Below the pieces are notes generated by a model. It was not told where the DNA came from and ran no database searches. It saw only the letters and a program-made list of their open reading frames with translations. From positions 1 through 8,614 of the forward strand of contig CAJXWI010000081.1 of the NCBI GenBank assembly GCA_913062735.1: a stretch of DNA of 8,614 nt, in the 5' to 3' direction. The DNA comes from an uncultured Arcobacter sp. (GTDB taxonomy: Bacteria; Campylobacterota; Campylobacteria; Campylobacterales; Arcobacteraceae). This document shows positions 1-8,614 of this stretch, piece by piece. Each line of letters opens with the position of its first letter. Position 1 is the stretch's first letter. The position numbers were made by a program, and so were the translations under genes.

Positions 1-38
1 AAGATTTGATAGCATTAGAAGAAGAATTTATTAAATAA
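1..38 (+). CDS. C-terminal tail of an upstream gene, probably diaminopimelate decarboxylase (LysA)
   Basis: Only the last 11 complete codons and the TAA stop (36-38) are present; they read DLIALEEEFIK. Many LysA proteins end in a segment of the form RRExxEDLIAxE, so this tail fits LysA. I also recall lysA lying close to pheA in other Campylobacterota. The fragment is too short to be decisive. It ends 15 bases before pheA, so the two are probably co-transcribed. Confidence 0.5.
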   Translation, partial: DLIALEEEFIK

Positions 39-53
39 AACTAAGGAAATCTT

Positions 54-1121
54 ATGGATGAAGCAGGACTAAAAGCATTACGAGACAAACTTGATTCTAT
101 TGATAATAATGTATTAAAACTTATTAATGAACGTATGCAAATTGTAAAAGATGTGGGAACACTTAAAGCTAAAAGCGGTGGGGCTATTTATAGACCTGAG
201 CGTGAAAAAGCAATCATAGATAGACTGGACAGTTTGAACAACGGTTTATTAAATAGAAGCGCTATAGAAGCATTGTTTTTAGAAGTATTTGCAATTTCTA
301 GAAACCTTGAACTCCCAGAAAATGTGGCCTTTTTAGGACCTGAGGGATCTTTCACTCATCAAGCAGCTGAAGCCAGATTTGGTGCAATGAGTTCTTATAT
401 CTCTATTGCTTCTATTAAAGGTGTTTTTAGAGAAGTAAGTACAAAAAAAGCAAAATTTGGGGTTATTCCTATTGAGAATTCTACGAATGGAATTGTTACA
501 GATACTATTAATTCTTTAAATAAATATGATTTAAAGATTATTGCAGAAGTAGTTTTGGATATTCATCATACACTTGCAACGACCTGTGATAAAGTAAGTG
601 ATATCAAAAAGATATATTCTAAAGATATTGCTTTTGCTCAATGTGCGCGTTTTTTAGAAAACTTTGGCTTGGATGAAGTAGAGCATATTCCAATTGAATC
701 AACTACTAAAGCTGCTAAACTTGCTCTAATAGAGCCAAATTCTGCCGCTATTTGCTCTCACGTGGGCGCAAAAATGTATAATCTTCCTATTTTATTTGAA
801 AATATTGAAGATAAAGACAATAATAAAACACGTTTTTTTATTGTAAGTGATTTTGAAAATACAAGTTCAGGAAATGATAAAACCACTATATTAGCAAAAC
901 TACCACATACCCCAGGGGCACTGGTAGAGTTTTTAACTGATTTTGATGCTCTTGGTATTAATATTACTAAAATTAAATCACATATTGTTGATGGCCAGTC
1001 AATCTTTTTTCTTGATTTTAATGGGCATAAAGACGATAAAAATGTAGGTACTATTTTAAAAAAACATGAAGAGCATGTAAAACTATTAGGCTCTTATGTA
1101 AAAGAAATTGACGATATTTAA
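54..1121 (+). CDS. pheA: Bifunctional chorismate mutase / prephenate dehydratase (P-protein)
   Basis: This cytoplasmic enzyme converts chorismate to prephenate and then to phenylpyruvate, committing carbon to phenylalanine. Three domains are visible in the 355 residues. An AroQ-type chorismate mutase spans about 1-85, with R10, R27, K38 and the YRPERE segment at 46-51. A prephenate dehydratase domain spans about 90-267, with FLGPEGSFTHQAA near 93, IPIENSTNGIV near 139 and the TRF catalytic motif at 259-261. A C-terminal ACT domain spans about 276-350. The ACT domain keeps the GALV motif (288-291), but the usual ESRP phenylalanine-site motif reads KSHI (308-311), so feedback control may differ. 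The ATG is preceded by AAGGAA at 43-48. The length is normal for a P-protein. It is followed 12 bases later by hisC, which could transaminate its product. Confidence 0.96.
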   Translation: MDEAGLKALRDKLDSIDNNVLKLINERMQIVKDVGTLKAKSGGAIYRPEREKAIIDRLDSLNNGLLNRSAIEALFLEVFAISRNLELPENVAFLGPEGSFTHQAAEARFGAMSSYISIASIKGVFREVSTKKAKFGVIPIENSTNGIVTDTINSLNKYDLKIIAEVVLDIHHTLATTCDKVSDIKKIYSKDIAFAQCARFLENFGLDEVEHIPIESTTKAAKLALIEPNSAAICSHVGAKMYNLPILFENIEDKDNNKTRFFIVSDFENTSSGNDKTTILAKLPHTPGALVEFLTDFDALGINITKIKSHIVDGQSIFFLDFNGHKDDKNVGTILKKHEEHVKLLGSYVKEIDDI

Positions 1122-1133
1122 AGGGATATATAA

Positions 1134-2246
1134 ATGAATTTTAATAAAGTTTTAGACGATTGTAAAATATATGAAGCAGGTAAACCTATTGAACTAGTTG
1201 TACGTGAATATGGTATTGAACTTAAAGATATTATTAAACTGGCTTCAAATGAAAACCCTTATGGAACTTCACCAAAAGTTGTTACAAAAGTACAAGAACA
1301 TGTAAAGAACATGTTTATGTATCCTGATGATTCTATGTATGAATTAAAAGAAGCTTTAGCTTCTAAGTATGAGGTTCAAAAAGAAAATATTGTAATAGGT
1401 TCTGGAAGTGATCAGTTATTAAACTTTTGTGTAAAAGCAAAATGTAATGAAAACTCAAAAATGTTAATGAGTAAAACAACTTTTGCTTTGTATGAAATCT
1501 ATGGAAAACAAGTAGGGTGTAAAATTCTTAAAACCAAAGACGATGAGCATAATTTAGAACAATTTTTACAAGCTTATAAAGAACATAAACCTTCTTTAAT
1601 TTTCTTGTGTTTACCTAATAACCCTTTGGGTGAGTGTTTAGATAAAGATGCCGTATATTCTTTTTTAGATGAAATTTCATCTGATACTTTAGTTGTAATT
1701 GATGGGGCTTATCAAGAATATGCAAAATTCAAAGACAGCAAAAAAGAAATAAATGCTCAAGATTTAATTAGCAAATATCCTAATTGTATTTATTTAGGAA
1801 CCTTTTCAAAGGCTTATTCTTTAGGTGGTATGAGAACAGGTTATGGTATTGCTCAAAAAGAAATAATTCAAGCTTTATTGAAATTACGTCCTCCTTTTAA
1901 TATTACAACACTTTCTTTATTGGCTTGTATTGAATCTTTAAAAGATGAAGAATTTGTAAATGAATGTATAGCTAAGAATTTTAGTGAAATGAAAAAATAT
2001 GAAGAATATGCAAAAATTAAGGGTTTCTCTTACATTGAATCGTATACCAATTTTATTACTTTAAAATTTGATAATAAATATATTTCATCTGAAGTTGCTC
2101 AAGGCTTATTACAAAGAGGTATAATAATTAGAGATTTAAGTGCATATGGATTAAATGCCATTAGAATTACTATTGGTACTGTTTCTCAAAATGAAAAAGT
2201 TCTTAAAATACTAAGTGAAGTATTAGAAGAAACAAAATTAGCATAA
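1134..2246 (+). CDS. hisC: Histidinol-phosphate aminotransferase family (PLP-dependent)
   Basis: This is a class I/II PLP aminotransferase of 370 residues, a normal HisC length. The N-terminus has the family pattern KLASNENPYG (36-44). PNNPLG (161-166) supplies the cofactor-contacting Asn, D190 and Y193 lie in VIDGAYQEY, and the Schiff-base lysine is K226 in TFSKAYSLGGMRTGY, with R234 close by for phosphate binding. The C-terminal RITIGT segment (about 343-348) is also typical. The known reaction is transamination between histidinol phosphate and imidazole-acetol phosphate. Because it sits directly behind pheA and no separate aromatic aminotransferase is seen here, I infer that it also converts phenylpyruvate to phenylalanine. 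The ribosome site AAGGGA lies at 1121-1126 and overlaps the pheA stop codon, which suggests translational coupling. Confidence 0.94.
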   Translation: MNFNKVLDDCKIYEAGKPIELVVREYGIELKDIIKLASNENPYGTSPKVVTKVQEHVKNMFMYPDDSMYELKEALASKYEVQKENIVIGSGSDQLLNFCVKAKCNENSKMLMSKTTFALYEIYGKQVGCKILKTKDDEHNLEQFLQAYKEHKPSLIFLCLPNNPLGECLDKDAVYSFLDEISSDTLVVIDGAYQEYAKFKDSKKEINAQDLISKYPNCIYLGTFSKAYSLGGMRTGYGIAQKEIIQALLKLRPPFNITTLSLLACIESLKDEEFVNECIAKNFSEMKKYEEYAKIKGFSYIESYTNFITLKFDNKYISSEVAQGLLQRGIIIRDLSAYGLNAIRITIGTVSQNEKVLKILSEVLEETKLA

Positions 2247-2255
2247 AGACAGTTT

Positions 2256-4058
2256 ATGGACATTAGAAATAAAGAGATTGAAGAGCTAAAAACAGTTTGT
2301 CAAGATATTAGAGATCGAATCATTGATGTAGTATCAAGAAAAGGTGGACATTTTTCATCTACACTTGGGGCTGTTGAATTAACAGTTGCTATGCATAAAG
2401 TATTTGATGTTACAAAAGATCCTTTTATTTACGATGTATCTCATCAGTGTTATGCCCATAAACTAATAAATGACAGATGGGACGAATTTGAAAGCATCAG
2501 ACAATATGGTGGACTTTCAGGATTTACTAAACCCAAAGAACATAAAAGCGATTATTTTGTAGCCGGACATAGTTCTACTTCTATTTCACTTGCTGTTGGA
2601 GCTGCTAAAGCTTTTAAATTAAAAGAAGAGAATAATATCCCTGTTGTTATGATTGGTGATGGTTCTATGACTGCTGGAATGGTTTATGAAGCCTTAAATG
2701 AATTAGGGGATATTAAATTACCTGTAGTTATTATTTTAAATGACAATGAAATGTCAATTGCAAAACCCATTGGTGCTATTTCTAAGTATCTTTCTAAATT
2801 ATTAGCTGGAAAATATTATCAAAGTTTTAAAGGAAAAGTGGATACTTTCATTAAAAATAATATGCCAGAAGGTACTAATTATATTGCAAAACGTATGGAA
2901 GCTTCTTTAAAACTTATCACTCCAGGTATTTTATTTGAAGAAATGGGAATTGATTATATAGGTCCTATTGATGGTCATGATTTAGAAGAAATTATTGACA
3001 CCTTAGAACTTGCAAAAGCCTTAGGTAAACCGGTAATCGTTCATGCAAGAACGGTAAAAGGAAAGGGATATAAAATATCAGAAGGTCAATTGGAAAAATG
3101 GCATGGAGTAGGTCCTTTTGATAAAAAAACTGGTGAGTTTGTTAAAAAACCAGCCCCAAAATCTGCAACAGCAATTTTTTCAGATGCTTTATGTGAATTA
3201 GCAGCAAAACATGAAAATGTTGTAGGAGTTACAGCTGCAATGCCAGGAGGGACGGGAATTTCAAAACTAATGAATAAATATCCTGATCGTTTTTGGGATG
3301 TAGCAATTGCGGAACAACATGCTGTTACATCTATGGCTGCTATGGCAAAAGAAGGTTTTAAGCCTTTTATTACTATTTATTCTACCTTCTTACAAAGAGG
3401 CTTTGATCAAATTATTCATGATGTATGTTTAATGTCCTTACCTGTTGTTTTTGCTATTGATAGAGCTGGTACTGTTGGAGCTGATGGAGAAACCCATCAA
3501 GGGGCTTTTGATATTTCTTATTTAAGATATATTCCTAATATGATTGTAATGGCACCAAGAGATGAAAAAACATTAATTGATGCAGTGCATTTTTCATATA
3601 CCTTAGATAAACCCTGTGCTCTGAGGTACCCAAGAGGAAGTTTTGAAAATCTTGATTTCCCAAATGAACCGTATATTTTAGGTCAGGCGCAATTATTAAA
3701 AAGTGGAACATCTAAAAAACTTTTTATTGGCTATGGTGCTGGAGTTAGAAGAGCTTGTGAAACACAAGAACTTCATGAAGAAGATATTGCAATTTTAGAT
3801 TTACGTTTTGTAAAACCCCTTGATAAAGAAATGCTAAAAAATCTTTCTTTAAAATACAATGATTGGTATGTTTTTTCAGATTCTCAAAAACAAGGTGGCG
3901 TTGCTTCTGCTATCTTAGAATGCATTAATGAAGAAAATATTCAAGCAAAAGTAAGGTCTTTTGAGTACGAAGACCATTTCATTGAACATGGGAATACTCC
4001 AGAAGTGGAGGAAGGTTTAGGCCTTTTACCAAGTCAACTGGTAAAAAAAATAGTATAA
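2256..4058 (+). CDS. dxs: 1-deoxy-D-xylulose-5-phosphate synthase
   Basis: This thiamine-diphosphate enzyme condenses pyruvate and glyceraldehyde 3-phosphate to DXP, the entry step of the MEP isoprenoid pathway, and it also feeds thiamine and pyridoxal synthesis. Expected motifs occur in order over 600 residues: H32 in KGGHFSS, GHSSTS at 104-109, the ThDP/Mg motif from GDGS (134) to NDN (162-164), GHDLE near 250, the catalytic glutamate E353 in AEQHAV, and DRAGTVGADGETHQG (402-415), which lines the active site. The transketolase C-domain follows from about 485. Length is close to the usual 600-640, so it looks intact. The start lies 9 bases after hisC with only a weak Shine-Dalgarno (AAAGA), suggesting coupled translation. 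It is the last gene of the operon. Confidence 0.97.
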   Translation: MDIRNKEIEELKTVCQDIRDRIIDVVSRKGGHFSSTLGAVELTVAMHKVFDVTKDPFIYDVSHQCYAHKLINDRWDEFESIRQYGGLSGFTKPKEHKSDYFVAGHSSTSISLAVGAAKAFKLKEENNIPVVMIGDGSMTAGMVYEALNELGDIKLPVVIILNDNEMSIAKPIGAISKYLSKLLAGKYYQSFKGKVDTFIKNNMPEGTNYIAKRMEASLKLITPGILFEEMGIDYIGPIDGHDLEEIIDTLELAKALGKPVIVHARTVKGKGYKISEGQLEKWHGVGPFDKKTGEFVKKPAPKSATAIFSDALCELAAKHENVVGVTAAMPGGTGISKLMNKYPDRFWDVAIAEQHAVTSMAAMAKEGFKPFITIYSTFLQRGFDQIIHDVCLMSLPVVFAIDRAGTVGADGETHQGAFDISYLRYIPNMIVMAPRDEKTLIDAVHFSYTLDKPCALRYPRGSFENLDFPNEPYILGQAQLLKSGTSKKLFIGYGAGVRRACETQELHEEDIAILDLRFVKPLDKEMLKNLSLKYNDWYVFSDSQKQGGVASAILECINEENIQAKVRSFEYEDHFIEHGNTPEVEEGLGLLPSQLVKKIV

Positions 4059-4071
4059 ACTTTTTTATTGT

Positions 4072-4107
4072 AGCTTCAAATATGTAATTTAAATTTGAAG
4101 CTTTTTT
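4072..4107 (+). terminator. Intrinsic terminator of the pheA-hisC-dxs operon
   Basis: A perfect 10-base inverted repeat (AGCTTCAAAT at 4072-4081 and ATTTGAAGCT at 4093-4102) encloses an 11-base loop and runs directly into a T-run at 4102-4107. It begins 13 bases after the dxs stop. On the minus strand the hairpin is followed by an A-rich stretch, not T, so it should act mainly on the plus-strand operon, although it sits just past the end of the converging gene. Confidence 0.85.
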
Positions 4108-4113
4108 ATCTTC

Positions 4114-4509
4114 CTAAGAATTTCTTTTATCTTCAAGATGAAAGGTAGACATAATTATTTTCCATGTTTGATTTTCATTAATAAGATTATAGGATTGTCT
4201 CCACTCTTTGATTATTTTATCCTCTTTATTCATCATTTGCCATGTAAATGTAACCAGCATACTTTTTGTACCAAGGGAAATAACTTCATAGTCTTTTGTA
4301 GAAAACTTAACATATCCATCTCTTTTCCACTTCGCTAAAACAGAGGTGAAAAATATTTCTGCTTCTATATTATCCTGCATAATTCTGCTTGTACCATCGC
4401 CTCGTATAGAAATAAAAGGTTCATGAAAAAATGAAGAAAATTTTTTCATATCCCAAGTATCAAATGTATTTCCATAGTGTGCAAAAAATTGTTTGGCTTG
4501 TTCTTTCAA
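4114..4509 (-). CDS. Small NTF2-like / SnoaL-like (DUF4440-type) protein
   Basis: This is a 131-residue protein without a signal peptide or membrane segment. The order of elements fits the NTF2-like cone fold: an N-terminal helix (AKQFFAHYGNTFDTWD), then FHEPFISIRGDGT at 29-40, a second helical part (about 45-62), and C-terminal strands with the typical pattern of an aromatic 'WRQSYNLI' strand followed by 'WKIIMSTFHLE' (103-126). Members act as small-molecule isomerases, hydrolases or plain ligand-binding domains, so no reaction can be assigned. The reading frame has no ATG near its 5' end. The best start is TTG (4507-4509 complement), with AAGGA at 4516-4520 complement, 6 bases upstream. An in-frame stop lies a few codons further up. 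The nearest internal ATG is residue 21, which would remove the first helix. The stop is TAG. Confidence 0.7.
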   Translation of the reverse strand: MKEQAKQFFAHYGNTFDTWDMKKFSSFFHEPFISIRGDGTSRIMQDNIEAEIFFTSVLAKWKRDGYVKFSTKDYEVISLGTKSMLVTFTWQMMNKEDKIIKEWRQSYNLINENQTWKIIMSTFHLEDKRNS

Positions 4510-4539
4510 GAAGCATCCTTTATAAAAAATTATTTATTC

Positions 4540-4545
4540 ATTATA
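4540..4545 (-). promoter_or_regulatory. Possible -10 box for the NTF2-like gene
   Basis: The complement reads TATAAT, 30 bases before the TTG start, in the 51-base gap after the permease gene. No convincing -35 box is seen, which is common for Campylobacterota vegetative promoters. The region is so AT-rich that a chance match is quite possible. The gene could instead be transcribed from the permease promoter. Confidence 0.3.
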
Positions 4546-4560
4546 ATAAAGTAATATGCT

Positions 4561-5436
4561 TTAAAGTGTAGTTAGACTCTTTTTATTAATATGAATTAAA
4601 TACAAAGAGTTAAGAATAAGAGTTAGTAAAATAACACCTCCACCTATAAAAGTATTAATAGCAGGAACTTCATTTAAAAACATCCAAACCCAAATAGGTG
4701 CCATTATGGTCTCTATAAGCATAAGTAATCCTACTTCACTAGGAGGTAGTATCTTTGTTCCTATACCTATAAAAAGCCTCGCCAAAGGAGAAATTAGTAA
4801 ACCTGCAAATAATAAAATATACAGTGCATTCATATTTATATAGATATTATTTGATAAAATAAAAGATATAAGAGCAGATATTGCACTACTTGCTGAAATG
4901 ACTGCAAACATGTTGATATTTTTATAACGCGATAAGAGAACAAAAGCTAAAGAAAACAATGCAATACAAAGAAATGCATAGATGTTTCCTTCATTATTCC
5001 CCTTTCCTATAGTTGTAGAAAAAATAATATACAAGCCCAAAAATATAAAAAAAGATGAAATATAAATATTTTTACTACTTTTTTCTTTAAATAAAATATA
5101 CATATAAAAAGCGGAAAAAATAGGGGCAATTGAGAAAATTACTACTACATTAGCGACACTTGTATTCTTAATGGCAGAAATAAATAATATATTTGAAATT
5201 CCTAATAAAAATCCACACAGTAAAATGGCCAATAAATCTTTTTTGTATGTAAGTAAAAAATGTCTTTTTTTAGTAAAAATAAGTATGAAATTTGATGAAC
5301 TTAGCATAAAAATGGAAATATAAAAAGAAAAAACAAGAGCCGAGATTGAAGTAAGTTTTATAAATAAAGATTCTAAGCTAAGTAATAGTACGCCACTTGC
5401 CGTAATTATCAGGCCTTTTAAATGTATATTTTTCAA
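4561..5436 (-). CDS. EamA/DMT-superfamily permease (drug/metabolite transporter)
   Basis: The 291-residue inner-membrane protein is almost entirely hydrophobic, with about ten predicted membrane helices (roughly 7-25, 32-53, 66-85, 92-115, 122-142, 150-168, 174-194, 203-225, 236-252, 259-284). It is arranged as two EamA repeats of five helices, and length and layout match the family. Typical family features are the FKEKSSK loop after helix 4 (E118) and the LNEVPAINTFIGGGVILL segment near the end (E256). EamA members export or import amino acids, nucleotides or other metabolites; the substrate cannot be told. The start is TTG (5434-5436 complement) with AAGGA 5 bases upstream, and an in-frame stop upstream rules out a longer form. 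It is divergent from the GntR/FCD regulator, a usual position for a regulated transporter. Confidence 0.85.
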   Translation of the reverse strand: MKNIHLKGLIITASGVLLLSLESLFIKLTSISALVFSFYISIFMLSSSNFILIFTKKRHFLLTYKKDLLAILLCGFLLGISNILFISAIKNTSVANVVVIFSIAPIFSAFYMYILFKEKSSKNIYISSFFIFLGLYIIFSTTIGKGNNEGNIYAFLCIALFSLAFVLLSRYKNINMFAVISASSAISALISFILSNNIYINMNALYILLFAGLLISPLARLFIGIGTKILPPSEVGLLMLIETIMAPIWVWMFLNEVPAINTFIGGGVILLTLILNSLYLIHINKKSLTTL

Positions 5437-5452
5437 GCTAATCCTTTTTAAT

Positions 5453-5508
5453 AAATATATCTAAAATATATTTAAAATATATTTTAAATTAAGATATAAG
5501 ATATATTT
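5453..5508. promoter_or_regulatory. Phased AAATATATYT repeat array, candidate regulator-binding region
   Basis: Three direct copies, AAATATATCT (5453-5462), AAATATATTT (5464-5473) and AAATATATTT (5475-5484), start exactly 11 bases apart. An inverted copy, AGATATATTT, lies at 5499-5508 and pairs perfectly with the first copy. The array lies just upstream of the permease start (5436) and inside the divergent region with the GntR/FCD gene, where an autoregulatory operator would be expected. Regular A-tract phasing would also bend the DNA. Binding by the neighbouring regulator is inference only. Confidence 0.45.
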
Positions 5509-5545
5509 GATTACAATTGTTACTTATTTTGCTTAAAAGTAAAAA

Positions 5546-5573
5546 TATAATTTAAGATGTATTTAAATATAAT
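5546..5573 (+). promoter_or_regulatory. Candidate -10 boxes for the GntR/FCD gene
   Basis: Two perfect TATAAT hexamers (5546-5551 and 5568-5573) precede the regulator gene. Neither has a consensus -35 at 16-18 bases; TTGCTT at 5529-5534 is too close to the first and TTGTTA at 5517-5522 is too far. Base composition makes chance matches likely, so the exact promoter is uncertain. The rest of the 180-base divergent region shows no gene. Confidence 0.3.
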
Positions 5574-5616
5574 AAAATAAATTAGAAAAAATAAATAATT
5601 AAATGTGAGTGCTAAT

Positions 5617-6255
5617 ATGGAAAAACTTAAAAAAAATAAAAACAAAAGCATGACGGAACAAGTTTATGAAATACTTGAAGATTTAATTGTATTTTGTAAA
5701 ATCGAACCAGGAAGTATTTTAAGCGAAGCTGAGATTGCAGAAATGATAGGCGCTGGGAGAACTCCTGTGCGTGAAGCATTAATACTTTTATCCAAATCTT
5801 TTTTAGTTAATATTTCTAGATCTGGAATACTAATTCCAGAAATGAATGCTTCTATTCAGTTACAAATGTTAGAAGTTAGACATTCAATTTTAAGTTTATG
5901 TGTAAAATGTGCCATCAAAAGGCTTAATGATACAGATAAAGAGAATATAAAAGTTTTATTAGTTCAAGCCAAAGAACAAGATGATGTAGAATTTTTACAT
6001 TGGTTAAAGAAACGACATGAAGTTTTAGCAAAAGCTTCAAAAAATCAGTTTATCTTGGAAGAACTCAAAAATGTACAGGGTTTATCTCATAGATTTTGGT
6101 ATTTTCATGCTCAAAAAGAAGATCATGAAGAAGGTAAAAAATTACACATAAAAATATTAGAAGCCGTTCTTGAACAAGACAATGAAAAAGCTATGACTTG
6201 TGTTGATTCATTAATCTCTTACCTCGAAACCTTTATACGAAAATATTCTATCTAA
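5617..6255 (+). CDS. GntR-family transcriptional regulator, FadR/FCD subfamily
   Basis: The protein has an N-terminal winged helix-turn-helix (about residues 12-73) with the GntR signature GRTPVREAL and the basic wing RSGILI. An all-helical FCD-type effector domain of about 130 residues follows. FCD regulators usually bind carboxylic acids and control nearby catabolic or transport genes, which suits a position between a permease and a TRAP binding protein. In typical FCD domains an Asp four residues before a conserved His helps hold a metal ion. Here the His is present (H134) but the Asp position is Leu (L130), while the later LHIKILEAV segment keeps its His (H177). The start is uncertain: ATG at 5617 has a partial GAG site 7 bases upstream, while an in-frame GTG at 5605 would add four residues but has no ribosome site. 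Confidence 0.88.
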   Translation: MEKLKKNKNKSMTEQVYEILEDLIVFCKIEPGSILSEAEIAEMIGAGRTPVREALILLSKSFLVNISRSGILIPEMNASIQLQMLEVRHSILSLCVKCAIKRLNDTDKENIKVLLVQAKEQDDVEFLHWLKKRHEVLAKASKNQFILEELKNVQGLSHRFWYFHAQKEDHEEGKKLHIKILEAVLEQDNEKAMTCVDSLISYLETFIRKYSI

Positions 6256-6276
6256 GAGTATTATTTTCTATTCCCT

Positions 6277-6306
6277 AATAAATATAGAGTTTTTTCTATA
6301 TTTATT
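6277..6306. repeat. AT-rich 12-base inverted repeat (stem-loop) after the regulator gene
   Basis: AATAAATATAGA (6277-6288) and TCTATATTTATT (6295-6306) pair perfectly around a 6-base T-rich loop, 21 bases past the regulator stop. It could end the regulator transcript, but neither strand has a T-run directly after the stem (the plus side continues CCTCC), so it is not a standard intrinsic terminator. The loop itself holds T5. Confidence 0.5.
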
Positions 6307-6368
6307 CCTCCTTTAAATAAATATTTCCTAAGGCAAATTTAACAGAAATAATTCGTACTTTTATTTTT

Positions 6369-6431
6369 AATATATTCTTACCATATTCTCAATATATCTT
6401 AAGCTAAATTAAAGTTTATTAAATATATACT
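6369..6431 (+). promoter_or_regulatory. Candidate control region of dctP with repeated AATATATCTTA motif
   Basis: AATATATTCTTA (6369-6380) and AATATATCTTA (6391-6401) start 22 bases apart, and a looser AAATATATAC lies at 6421-6430. The 11-base AATATATCTTA also occurs, on the minus strand, at 5497-5507 in the divergent region upstream of the GntR/FCD gene. A possible -10 (TATACT) lies at 6426-6431, about 40 bases before the dctP ATG, without a clear -35. The shared motif suggests one regulator for both regions, but low sequence complexity weakens the case. Confidence 0.35.
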
Positions 6432-6470
6432 TCTTATACAAGTTAGGAATTAACTGTAAAAGGATGAAGA

Positions 6471-7520
6471 ATGATTAAAGGTAAAGTAATTGGCACTTTA
6501 TGTGCAATGTTATTAGGGGCTAGTTTAAATGCAGAAACATGGAAGTTTGCAAGCGAAGAATCTAAAAAAGATGTACAAGATATTTATGCACAAACGTTTG
6601 CAAAGTCTGTAAAAGAACAATCAAATGGAAAAATAAAAGTTAGAGTGTATTATTATGGACAATTAGGTGGAGAGAATGATATTGTTGAATTAACATCTAA
6701 TGGAACGATACAATTTGTATCTGTAGGTACTGGACACTTAGGTTCTTTTGTTCCTGAAGTTCAAGCATTATCAATTCCGTATGTATTAACTAATAATGAA
6801 GAGGCTGCATTAGAGGTTTTAACTACAAGTAAAACAATCTACAATGATTTAGCACCAAAGTTTGAAAAAGTTAATTTAAAACTTTTATCAATGTTAACTG
6901 AGGGTGAAATGGCATGGGGTGCAAATAAAGCTATTAGAACACCAGCTGATTTTGCAGGTCAAAAAATAAGAACATTTACTTCTACAATTCCTGTTGAAAC
7001 CTATAAAGCATTTGGTGCGGTACCAACTCCTTTATCATGGGGTGAAGTATATTCTTCTTTACAATTAGGAACAGTTGATGGAATGGTTAATCCAATGTAT
7101 TTTATTTACGGTGCAAAATGGCATATGGTTCAAAAATATATTATGTTCCCAGGGCAACAGCCTTATGTAGCAACAGTATCTACTAACTCTAAGTGGTATA
7201 ATAATCTTAGCGATAATAAAAAAATGATTGTTAAAAAAGCAATTAAAGAAGCAGATAAAGCTGCATTTATTTACCAAAAGAAGATTAATAAAGAAAATAC
7301 ACTTAAAATGAAAGAAGAAAATAAAGACTTAACATTTATTACTTTAACTGAAGATGAGCGTGCAAAATTTAAAGAAGTAAGTAAATCTTTACATGCAACA
7401 TATTTAGAAGTTGTAGCAAATGCTTATCCAGCAGATCAAAAAGAACAAGCTAAAAAAGATGCTCAAAAAATCTTAAATAATTTAATTAAAGAAGTAGCAG
7501 CGGCTGAGAAAAAACACTAA
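6471..7520 (+). CDS. TRAP transporter solute-binding protein, DctP family
   Basis: The 349-residue periplasmic protein has an N-terminal signal peptide (lysines at 3 and 5, hydrophobic core, likely cleavage in SLNA|ETW near residue 21). It then shows the DctP fold: a strand WKFASEE, the long first helix with FAKSVKEQSNGKIKVRVYYYGQLG (split across 43-65), SIPYVL near 111, and the GQKIRTF motif, whose R167 corresponds to the arginine that clamps the substrate carboxylate. LGTVDGMVNP (199-208) is another family hallmark. It captures an organic acid for a sodium-driven TRAP permease. The exact ligand is unknown. The start has a strong AAAAGGA at 6458-6464. No DctQ or DctM gene follows within the window, so it is either an orphan or depends on membrane subunits encoded elsewhere. 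The C-terminus is lysine-rich. Confidence 0.92.
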   Translation: MIKGKVIGTLCAMLLGASLNAETWKFASEESKKDVQDIYAQTFAKSVKEQSNGKIKVRVYYYGQLGGENDIVELTSNGTIQFVSVGTGHLGSFVPEVQALSIPYVLTNNEEAALEVLTTSKTIYNDLAPKFEKVNLKLLSMLTEGEMAWGANKAIRTPADFAGQKIRTFTSTIPVETYKAFGAVPTPLSWGEVYSSLQLGTVDGMVNPMYFIYGAKWHMVQKYIMFPGQQPYVATVSTNSKWYNNLSDNKKMIVKKAIKEADKAAFIYQKKINKENTLKMKEENKDLTFITLTEDERAKFKEVSKSLHATYLEVVANAYPADQKEQAKKDAQKILNNLIKEVAAAEKKH

Positions 7521-7560
7521 ACATTTATCTTCCTTCCTTAGGGAAGGGGGGGCAAATGTT
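7520..7560 (+). promoter_or_regulatory. GC-rich intercistronic hairpin covering the next gene's RBS and ATG
   Basis: The outer arms AACATTT (7520-7526) and AAATGTT (7554-7560) enclose an inner stem of CTTCC (7533-7537) with GGAAG (7542-7546) around a TTAG loop, extended by further C-G and G-U pairs into the G7 run at 7546-7552. There is no T-run afterwards, so it is not a normal terminator. The 3' arm contains the G-rich ribosome site and the ATG at 7556. Such hairpins after binding-protein genes can stabilise the upstream mRNA; here it could also limit translation of the next frame. Confidence 0.6.
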
Positions 7561-8614
7561 ACTTAAAACAAAAAGAAATAAGATGAAAATAAATAATTTA
7601 AAATGTGAAATTAACAATAAGATTTCTCACAATGGAAAAATAGGTTTAATACTTCTGGCAACAGATCAAATTACTTTATATGAATTTGAAAGTATTTTTA
7701 AAGACTTAGGAATTTTATGTTTTCCTTCAAGAGTGATGAATGAAGTAGAACTTACGCCTAGTGTTTTATTAAAAATAAAAGATGAGCTAAAAAATGCTAA
7801 AATTGTTGGAGAAATAAATATTATAATACTTAAAAAAATTACTTTTTTAATTTTATTGTCTTTTATAATTACCAACACCTCAAAGAGTGATTTTAAAGAA
7901 ATAAAAAAAAAAGCAATAATTACTAAGCCAGAAATTATATTTCCAATTCGAGAAAAACTGGATAAATGCATAAATAATATGTATGTAAATCAAACTACCA
8001 ATCCTGTTTTACCAGTAATAAAAGTTGAAGCTCCATCAGGATACGGACTGGATAATAGATTTATGTATTCTTTAAATAAGTTTGAAAATTTTGAGGAAGA
8101 ATATATTGACCTTACAAAAACCTTTGAATCTTTTTCTAAATCAGTTTCAAAAGATCATAAAAATGATAATTTATTGTCACTTGCAAATTCAAGATCAAGA
8201 TTAAGAATGACAACTTTATATTACCACGCTACCCTAAATAATTATTTAGTTGTTGGGACAGGGAACAAAGTTGAAGATTTTGGTGTTGGATTTTATACAA
8301 AATATGGCGATGGTGGAGTTGATTTATCTCCTATTGCTGACCTAATGAAATCTCAAGTAAGATCCGTTGCCAAACAACTAAATATAATTGATGAAATCAT
8401 AATAGCTAAACCAACCGATGGTCTTTGGGATGATACAAGAAGTGATGAAGATCAAATTGGCGCTACTTATGATGAACTTGAAAAAGCAATGGAATTAAAA
8501 AATAAAAAAATCAGCCCTGACACATTAGAAGGTAGAAGTCTTGAAGTTTATAATATTTTGGACAATTTCTACAATAAGAACGAGCATAAGATGATTCCAA
8601 TTCCCATATGCAAA
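7556..8614 (+). CDS. Chimeric open frame: Asp/Glu racemase-like N-terminus joined to a NadE-like domain lacking the PP-loop (3' end cut by window)
   Basis: The frame is open for 353 codons with no stop. Residues 27-82 (IGLILLATDQ at 29-38, SRV at 58-60, ELTP at 65-68) resemble the start of arylmalonate decarboxylase / maleate isomerase / Asp-Glu racemase proteins, but the cysteine-bearing catalytic regions that should follow are missing. Residues 83-130 match nothing I recognise and include a hydrophobic run (ITFLILLSFII). From about P150 the protein follows NAD+ synthetase: LANSRSRLRMTTLYY (209-223), GTGNKVEDFG (234-243), GDGGVDLSPI near 251, PTDGLW and SDEDQ (296-300), and HKMIPIPICK (344-353), close to the normal NadE C-terminus. 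The NadE ATP-binding SGGxDS position reads REKLDK (132-137). ATG 7556 has a G-rich ribosome site; ATG 7583 is an alternative start. It may be a degenerate or rearranged gene; catalytic NAD synthesis is doubtful. Confidence 0.72.
   Translation, partial: MLLKTKRNKMKINNLKCEINNKISHNGKIGLILLATDQITLYEFESIFKDLGILCFPSRVMNEVELTPSVLLKIKDELKNAKIVGEINIIILKKITFLILLSFIITNTSKSDFKEIKKKAIITKPEIIFPIREKLDKCINNMYVNQTTNPVLPVIKVEAPSGYGLDNRFMYSLNKFENFEEEYIDLTKTFESFSKSVSKDHKNDNLLSLANSRSRLRMTTLYYHATLNNYLVVGTGNKVEDFGVGFYTKYGDGGVDLSPIADLMKSQVRSVAKQLNIIDEIIIAKPTDGLWDDTRSDEDQIGATYDELEKAMELKNKKISPDTLEGRSLEVYNILDNFYNKNEHKMIPIPICK

What the first reader, a model, noticed from the sequence alone, without database searches (positions are those of the whole stretch)
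7556..8614. In-frame fusion of a racemase/decarboxylase-family N-terminus to a NadE-like domain
A single uninterrupted frame in AT-rich DNA joins about 55 residues typical of the N-terminus of Asp/Glu racemase-AMDase proteins to about 200 residues of NAD+ synthetase, through ~48 residues of unknown origin. I know of no described protein with this architecture. Options are a deletion scar that happens to stay in frame, an assembly chimera, or a genuine fused pseudoenzyme linking carboxylate metabolism to NAD or nucleotide sensing. The neighbouring DctP and FCD regulator would fit the racemase/decarboxylase part, since such enzymes often sit beside carboxylate binding proteins.
Basis: partly seen in the sequence, partly recalled or inferred. 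Interest (0 to 1): 0.72.

Follow-up and report, generated by a model that had tools for sequence, protein, structure and literature searches.

The report
Contig stitched from three unrelated bacteria
The apparent fused enzyme is almost certainly an artefact: the end of this DNA record is pieced together from an Arcobacter-like bacterium, a SAR11 ocean bacterium and a Flavobacteriales bacterium, and the searches made here found no such protein elsewhere.

Summary
The open frame at 7556-8614 is really in the sequence, but it is not one gene. At the DNA level it is three pieces of three unrelated bacteria. Window 3-7797 is collinear with Arcobacter sp. NORP36 (85.6% over 7.8 kb) and ends inside an AMDase-like gene. 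Window 7823-8092 is 94-96% identical to the start of an alginate-lyase-family gene of SAR11 (Pelagibacteraceae). Window 8073-8614 is 94.8% identical to nadE of Flavobacteriales MED-G118. The second seam is an exact 20-base word common to the SAR11 and Flavobacteriales genes; about 70 such words are expected by chance between two genomes of that composition and size. The first seam holds about 25 AT-rich bases of unknown origin. Each piece keeps the frame of its source gene. Eight of eight arcobacterial genomes with a long match (104 searched) keep the order DctP, AMDase-like gene, DctQ, DctM. None of the 250 proteins held from three searches joins two of the pieces. The NadE piece lacks its N-terminal third. 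Verdict: inter-species chimera from assembly or library preparation, without biological novelty.

The parts
1..7797 (+). Arcobacter-type chromosome segment, including GntR/FCD regulator, DctP and the first 242 bases of an AMDase-like gene
   Evidence: One collinear blastn match to L006 (Arcobacter sp. NORP36), 85.6% over 7822 columns, w3-7797
7556..7797 (+). Truncated N-terminus of the Arcobacter AMDase-like gene
   Evidence: 95% DNA identity to G001 (the genome of L006) over query bases 1-242; whole gene L006:7986-8801, Pfam Amdase at residues 95-265
7798..7822 (.). Seam 1: about 25 AT-rich bases of unknown origin between the Arcobacter and SAR11 pieces
   Evidence: Base-by-base comparison; no match with up to 3 mismatches in 7 of 7 chosen genomes, no exact match in viral contigs
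7823..8092 (+). Start of a SAR11 (Pelagibacteraceae) alginate-lyase-family gene, in its own frame
   Evidence: 94.4-96.3% over 270 bases in 4 of 4 SAR11 loci; L003:4945-6144, Pfam Alginate_lyase
8073..8092 (.). Seam 2: exact 20-base word shared by the SAR11 gene and the Flavobacteriales nadE gene
   Evidence: Exact match in L001-L005, each source diverging from the window on its outer side
8073..8614 (+). C-terminal two thirds of Flavobacteriales nadE, in its own frame, without its N-terminal part; runs off the window
   Evidence: 94.8% over 542 bases, no gaps, to L001 (Flavobacteriales MED-G118); whole gene L001:7860-8654

Best explanation
An inter-species chimera made when the sequence was produced, most likely by a short-read metagenome assembler that walked from an Arcobacter contig into SAR11 DNA and then into Flavobacteriales DNA. 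Shown: three DNA pieces from three lineages, and an exact 20-base word shared by both sources at the second seam. Inferred: that the assembler used this word as a k-mer overlap, that a similar short bridge explains the 25-base first seam, and that the window comes from a metagenome at all. The frame stays open because each piece entered in the frame of its own gene. The open frame therefore encodes no natural protein and has no function to explain.
For:: the window is collinear with Arcobacter to 7797, then 94-96% SAR11 for 7823-8092, then 94.8% Flavobacteriales for 8073-8614; in 7 of 7 source genomes no two of the pieces adjoin (two SAR11 genomes, G005 and G006, also have a 70-71% match to the nadE part, on another contig than the SAR11 piece; the other extra matches are short); seam 2 is an exact 20-base word common to L001 and L002-L005; about 70 shared 20-mers are expected by chance between two such AT-rich genomes (independent-base model), so raw material for a false join is plentiful; 8 of 8 arcobacterial genomes with a long match have DctP, a near-full-length AMDase-like gene, DctQ and the start of DctM in order; in the 10 fetched SAR11 loci, of 297 genomes searched, the alginate-lyase-family gene aligns from residue 1 or 3 to 399 of 399; none of 250 held proteins joins two pieces; the NadE profile match starts at position 74 of 242.
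Against: No reads or coverage could be examined, and no genome is held for the window. Seam 1 shows no shared word of that length between the reference strains, although about 163 shared 20-mers would be expected between an Arcobacter and a SAR11 genome; its 25 bases are unassigned. The exact strains in the sample were not found, so the seam words are inferred from relatives about 4-15% diverged.
Confidence: 0.97

Rival explanations
1. A real gene fusion in an Arcobacter, made by recent uptake of a SAR11 fragment and a Flavobacteriales nadE fragment.
For: The frame is open throughout, and each piece keeps its source frame.
Against: Two foreign pieces from two other lineages, each about 95% identical at the DNA level to sequenced organisms and each cut inside a gene. 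The NadE piece lacks its N-terminal third. None of the genomes or proteins seen has the joint.
Confidence: 0.01
2. A wet-lab chimera (amplification or ligation of mixed DNA during library making) rather than a software error; a sub-case of the chimera above as regards the verdict.
For: The unassigned 25-base stretch at seam 1 fits an extra fragment or ligation product as well as an assembler bridge.
Against: The exact 20-base shared word at seam 2 fits a k-mer overlap; template switching could also use it, so this is weak evidence.
Confidence: 0.15
3. Deletion scar inside one genome that happens to stay in frame.
For: The AMDase-like gene is truncated at 7797.
Against: The DNA after the truncation matches SAR11 and Flavobacteriales genomes, and in the two arcobacterial relatives the gene simply continues and is followed by DctQ and DctM.
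Confidence: 0.005

Closest known systems
Inter-species chimeric contigs in short-read metagenome assembly (review PMC7299287, passages seen)
   Same: One contig with sequence from more than one genome; [quoted passage not shown]
   Different: The passages seen speak mainly of closely related species; the organisms here are distant, and one seam has an unassigned 25-base stretch.
EutA / arylmalonate decarboxylase-like protein (TIGR02990, PF17645)
   Same: Residues 1-81 come from such a gene in Arcobacter.
   Different: Cut off after 81 residues; the intact relative scores 135 bits against a cut-off of 318 for EutA, so its own function is open.
NAD(+) synthase NadE (TIGR00552, PF02540)
   Same: Residues 175-346 match the C-terminal two thirds.
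   Different: The N-terminal part of the domain is absent; the intact source gene has it.

Membership tests
Inter-species assembly chimera | Different stretches of one contig belong to different organisms at the DNA level | tested here: met
   Arcobacter, SAR11, Flavobacteriales
Inter-species assembly chimera | Short exact overlap at the joint | tested here: inconclusive
   Met at seam 2 (20 bases); not met at seam 1 (25 unassigned bases)
Inter-species assembly chimera | Related genomes lack the joint | tested here: met
   7 of 7 source genomes; 8 of 8 arcobacterial genomes with a long match; 15 of 15 long SAR11 matches stop at the seams
Inter-species assembly chimera | Read coverage or read pairing breaks at the joint | not testable with these tools
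   No reads held
NAD(+) synthase (NadE) | Full domain including the N-terminal part | tested here: not met
   Profile match starts at 74 of 242; the intact gene in L001 matches 1-239. The window ends before the gene does, so the far C-terminus is unseen
Arylmalonate decarboxylase / Asp-Glu racemase-like | Full-length domain | tested here: not met
   The window protein has no Pfam Amdase match at E up to 1; only 81 residues of the Arcobacter gene are present

The most novel reading that the evidence does not exclude
A real three-part fusion gene in an Arcobacter-like bacterium, freshly assembled in nature from SAR11 and Flavobacteriales DNA taken up in sea water.
Probability: 0.01. Interest if true: 0.55.

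Novelty: not a real feature. Interest (0 to 1): 0.03.

Why it matters
It does not add biology. It is a clear example of how false joins in AT-rich DNA can yield an open, in-frame and plausible-looking multidomain protein, so that an open frame alone is no evidence of a gene fusion.

Tried and rejected
A genuine fusion: rejected, because the three pieces match three organisms at the DNA level and no protein seen joins two pieces. Limits: one search scored only the 8000 candidates sharing most words and listed 120; one search listed 120 of 125. Of the 250 proteins held, 249 share 5-residue words with one piece only; P0130, of the SAR11 family, shares 43 words with the SAR11 piece and one with the NadE piece, which I take for chance. 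A deletion scar: rejected.

Origin of the 25 bases at seam 1: a 28-base pattern with up to 3 mismatches found nothing in 7 of 7 chosen genomes; a 26-base exact pattern found nothing in viral contigs. Upstream of the gene, 14 SAR11 loci (12 genomes) agree with the window at only 9-16 of 46 positions. The best local alignment of a 30-base stretch over all 35 held loci scored 15.5 (L007); it was just above 10 shuffles that had been tried on one strand only, and 7 of 60 shuffles on both strands reached it, so it is not notable. An exact 39-base pattern across seam 2 found nothing in viral contigs. The genome collection was not scanned for the seam patterns, its one scan having been used. Structure prediction was not run, since the frame is not one protein.

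Full report
Observation. The frame 7556-8614 is present and open to the end of the window. Pfam finds only NAD_synthase in it, residues 179-346, starting at profile position 74 of 242; NCBIfam agrees (TIGR00552, residues 175-346, profile 75-238).

Where the pieces come from. A scan of the genome collection with the frame's translation gave 7 loci, each covering one part only: two arcobacterial records for residues 1-81 and 6-81 (L006 Arcobacter sp. NORP36, L007 Campylobacteraceae DT_9), four uncultured Pelagibacteraceae (SAR11) records for residues 90-181 (L002-L005), and one Flavobacteriales MAG for residues 152-353 (L001). At the DNA level the borders are sharp. w3-7797 is one collinear match to L006, 85.6% over 7822 columns. 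w7823-8092 matches four of four SAR11 loci at 94.4-96.3%. w8073-8614 matches L001 at 94.8% without gaps. That these lineages belong to three phyla is recalled taxonomy, not a call.

What the source genes are. In L006 the Arcobacter gene is a whole 271-aa frame (L006:7986-8801), Pfam Amdase at residues 95-265, all beyond the window's break. Its best NCBIfam match is EutA, residues 33-265, below the cut-off (135 against 318 bits). It is followed by DctQ, DctM, a PALP-family enzyme and an M20 hydrolase. In L003 the SAR11 gene is a whole 399-aa frame (L003:4945-6144) of Pfam Alginate_lyase; its ATG overlaps the stop of the preceding 895-codon ORF (I name that ORF phosphoenolpyruvate carboxylase from recall, no family scan was run on it). 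The window has only its first 270 bases. In L001 nadE is a whole 264-aa gene (L001:7860-8654). The window has it from about codon 74 on, so the segment GISGGIDSA (ATP-binding loop, a recalled motif) is absent.

The seams. At seam 2 the SAR11 and Flavobacteriales genes share an exact 20-base word, w8073-8092, and each departs from the window on its outer side. With the base composition of the two loci, independent bases and genome sizes of 1.0 and 1.2 Mb, about 70 shared 20-mers are expected by chance, so such words are common in AT-rich DNA. A word of this length is what a small-k de Bruijn graph assembler can walk through (inference); the review PMC7299287 (passages seen; the other papers only as a listing) describes chimeric contigs arising from shared k-mers and iterative assemblers that begin with small k. 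Seam 1 is less clean: Arcobacter ends at 7797-7799 and SAR11 begins at 7823-7826, with about 25 bases in between that match none of 14 SAR11 upstream regions, none of 7 chosen genomes with 3 mismatches and no viral contig exactly; the best local alignment among the held loci is within what shuffles reach (7 of 60). I cannot say where these bases come from.

Relatives. Of 104 genomes of the family of G001 searched with w7556-7860 (up to 7 candidate places scored per genome), 79 had some match at E 0.001, but only 8 had a long one (164 bases or more); the rest are short matches. In 8 of 8 of those, tblastn shows DctP, a near-full-length AMDase-like protein (from residue 1-15 to 262-271 of 271), DctQ and the start of DctM in the same order (two of the eight are the genomes of L006 and L007). 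Of 297 genomes of the SAR11 family (drawn from a larger group, up to 2 candidates scored per genome), 223 had some match, most of them short; 15 had matches of 203 bases or more, and none of these extends outside w7823-8092. In the 10 fetched loci the alginate-lyase-family gene aligns from residue 1 or 3 to 399 of 399. Of 199 genomes of the family of G007, 180 match the query w8030-8614, the best again the source of L001 at 95% and the next at 78%. In 7 of 7 source genomes searched with the whole frame, no two of the three pieces adjoin; G005 and G006 (SAR11) also show a 70-71% match to the nadE part on another contig than the SAR11 piece, presumably their own nadE.

Proteins. One search with the whole frame: best 120 listed of 8000 scored, all 120 with PF02540, the highest query coverage 64%. 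One search with residues 40-130: 13 proteins, 4 with the AMDase domain, 8 with PF05426 and one without a domain call, each covering 43-46%. One search with residues 130-205: 125 proteins, 120 listed, each covering 53-71%: two NadE proteins, the others PF05426 except three without a domain call. A word count over the 250 proteins held shows 4 that share 5-residue words with the Arcobacter piece only, 125 with the SAR11 piece only, 120 with the NadE piece only, and one (P0130) with 43 SAR11 words and a single NadE word. None joins two pieces.

Frame. The Arcobacter, SAR11 and Flavobacteriales pieces each lie in the frame of their source gene, which is why no stop appears. By chance this would happen for about one in nine such double joins on the right strand (my estimate), and the frame was noticed because it is open.

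Conclusion. The fusion is an artefact of sequence production, most likely of assembly. Assembler versus wet-lab chimera cannot be decided without reads. The upstream 7.5 kb is collinear with Arcobacter and shows nothing unusual.

Noticed in passing
L006:6916-13149 (window 6471-7797 is its start): Arcobacter gene run of TRAP transporter DctPQM with an EutA/arylmalonate-decarboxylase-like protein (below cut-off), a diaminopropionate-ammonia-lyase-family enzyme (PRK08206, above cut-off) and a YgeY-type M20 hydrolase (above cut-off): may be a catabolic operon for an imported amino acid or ectoine-like carboxylate (the substrate is a guess).
   Followed up: partly
L003:2261-6144: In L003 (SAR11) an alginate-lyase-family gene overlaps the end of the preceding 895-codon ORF by four bases; of 14 SAR11 loci (12 genomes) compared, 11 loci have that ORF right upstream and 3 (L022, L023, L025) do not.
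   Followed up: partly
window 4561-5436: The EamA-family transporter has a second, diverged copy in both arcobacterial relatives (L006:14338-15193 at 69.5%, L007:9454-10299 at 66%).
   Followed up: no
window 7798-7822: About 25 AT-rich bases at the first seam match none of the source loci.
   Followed up: partly
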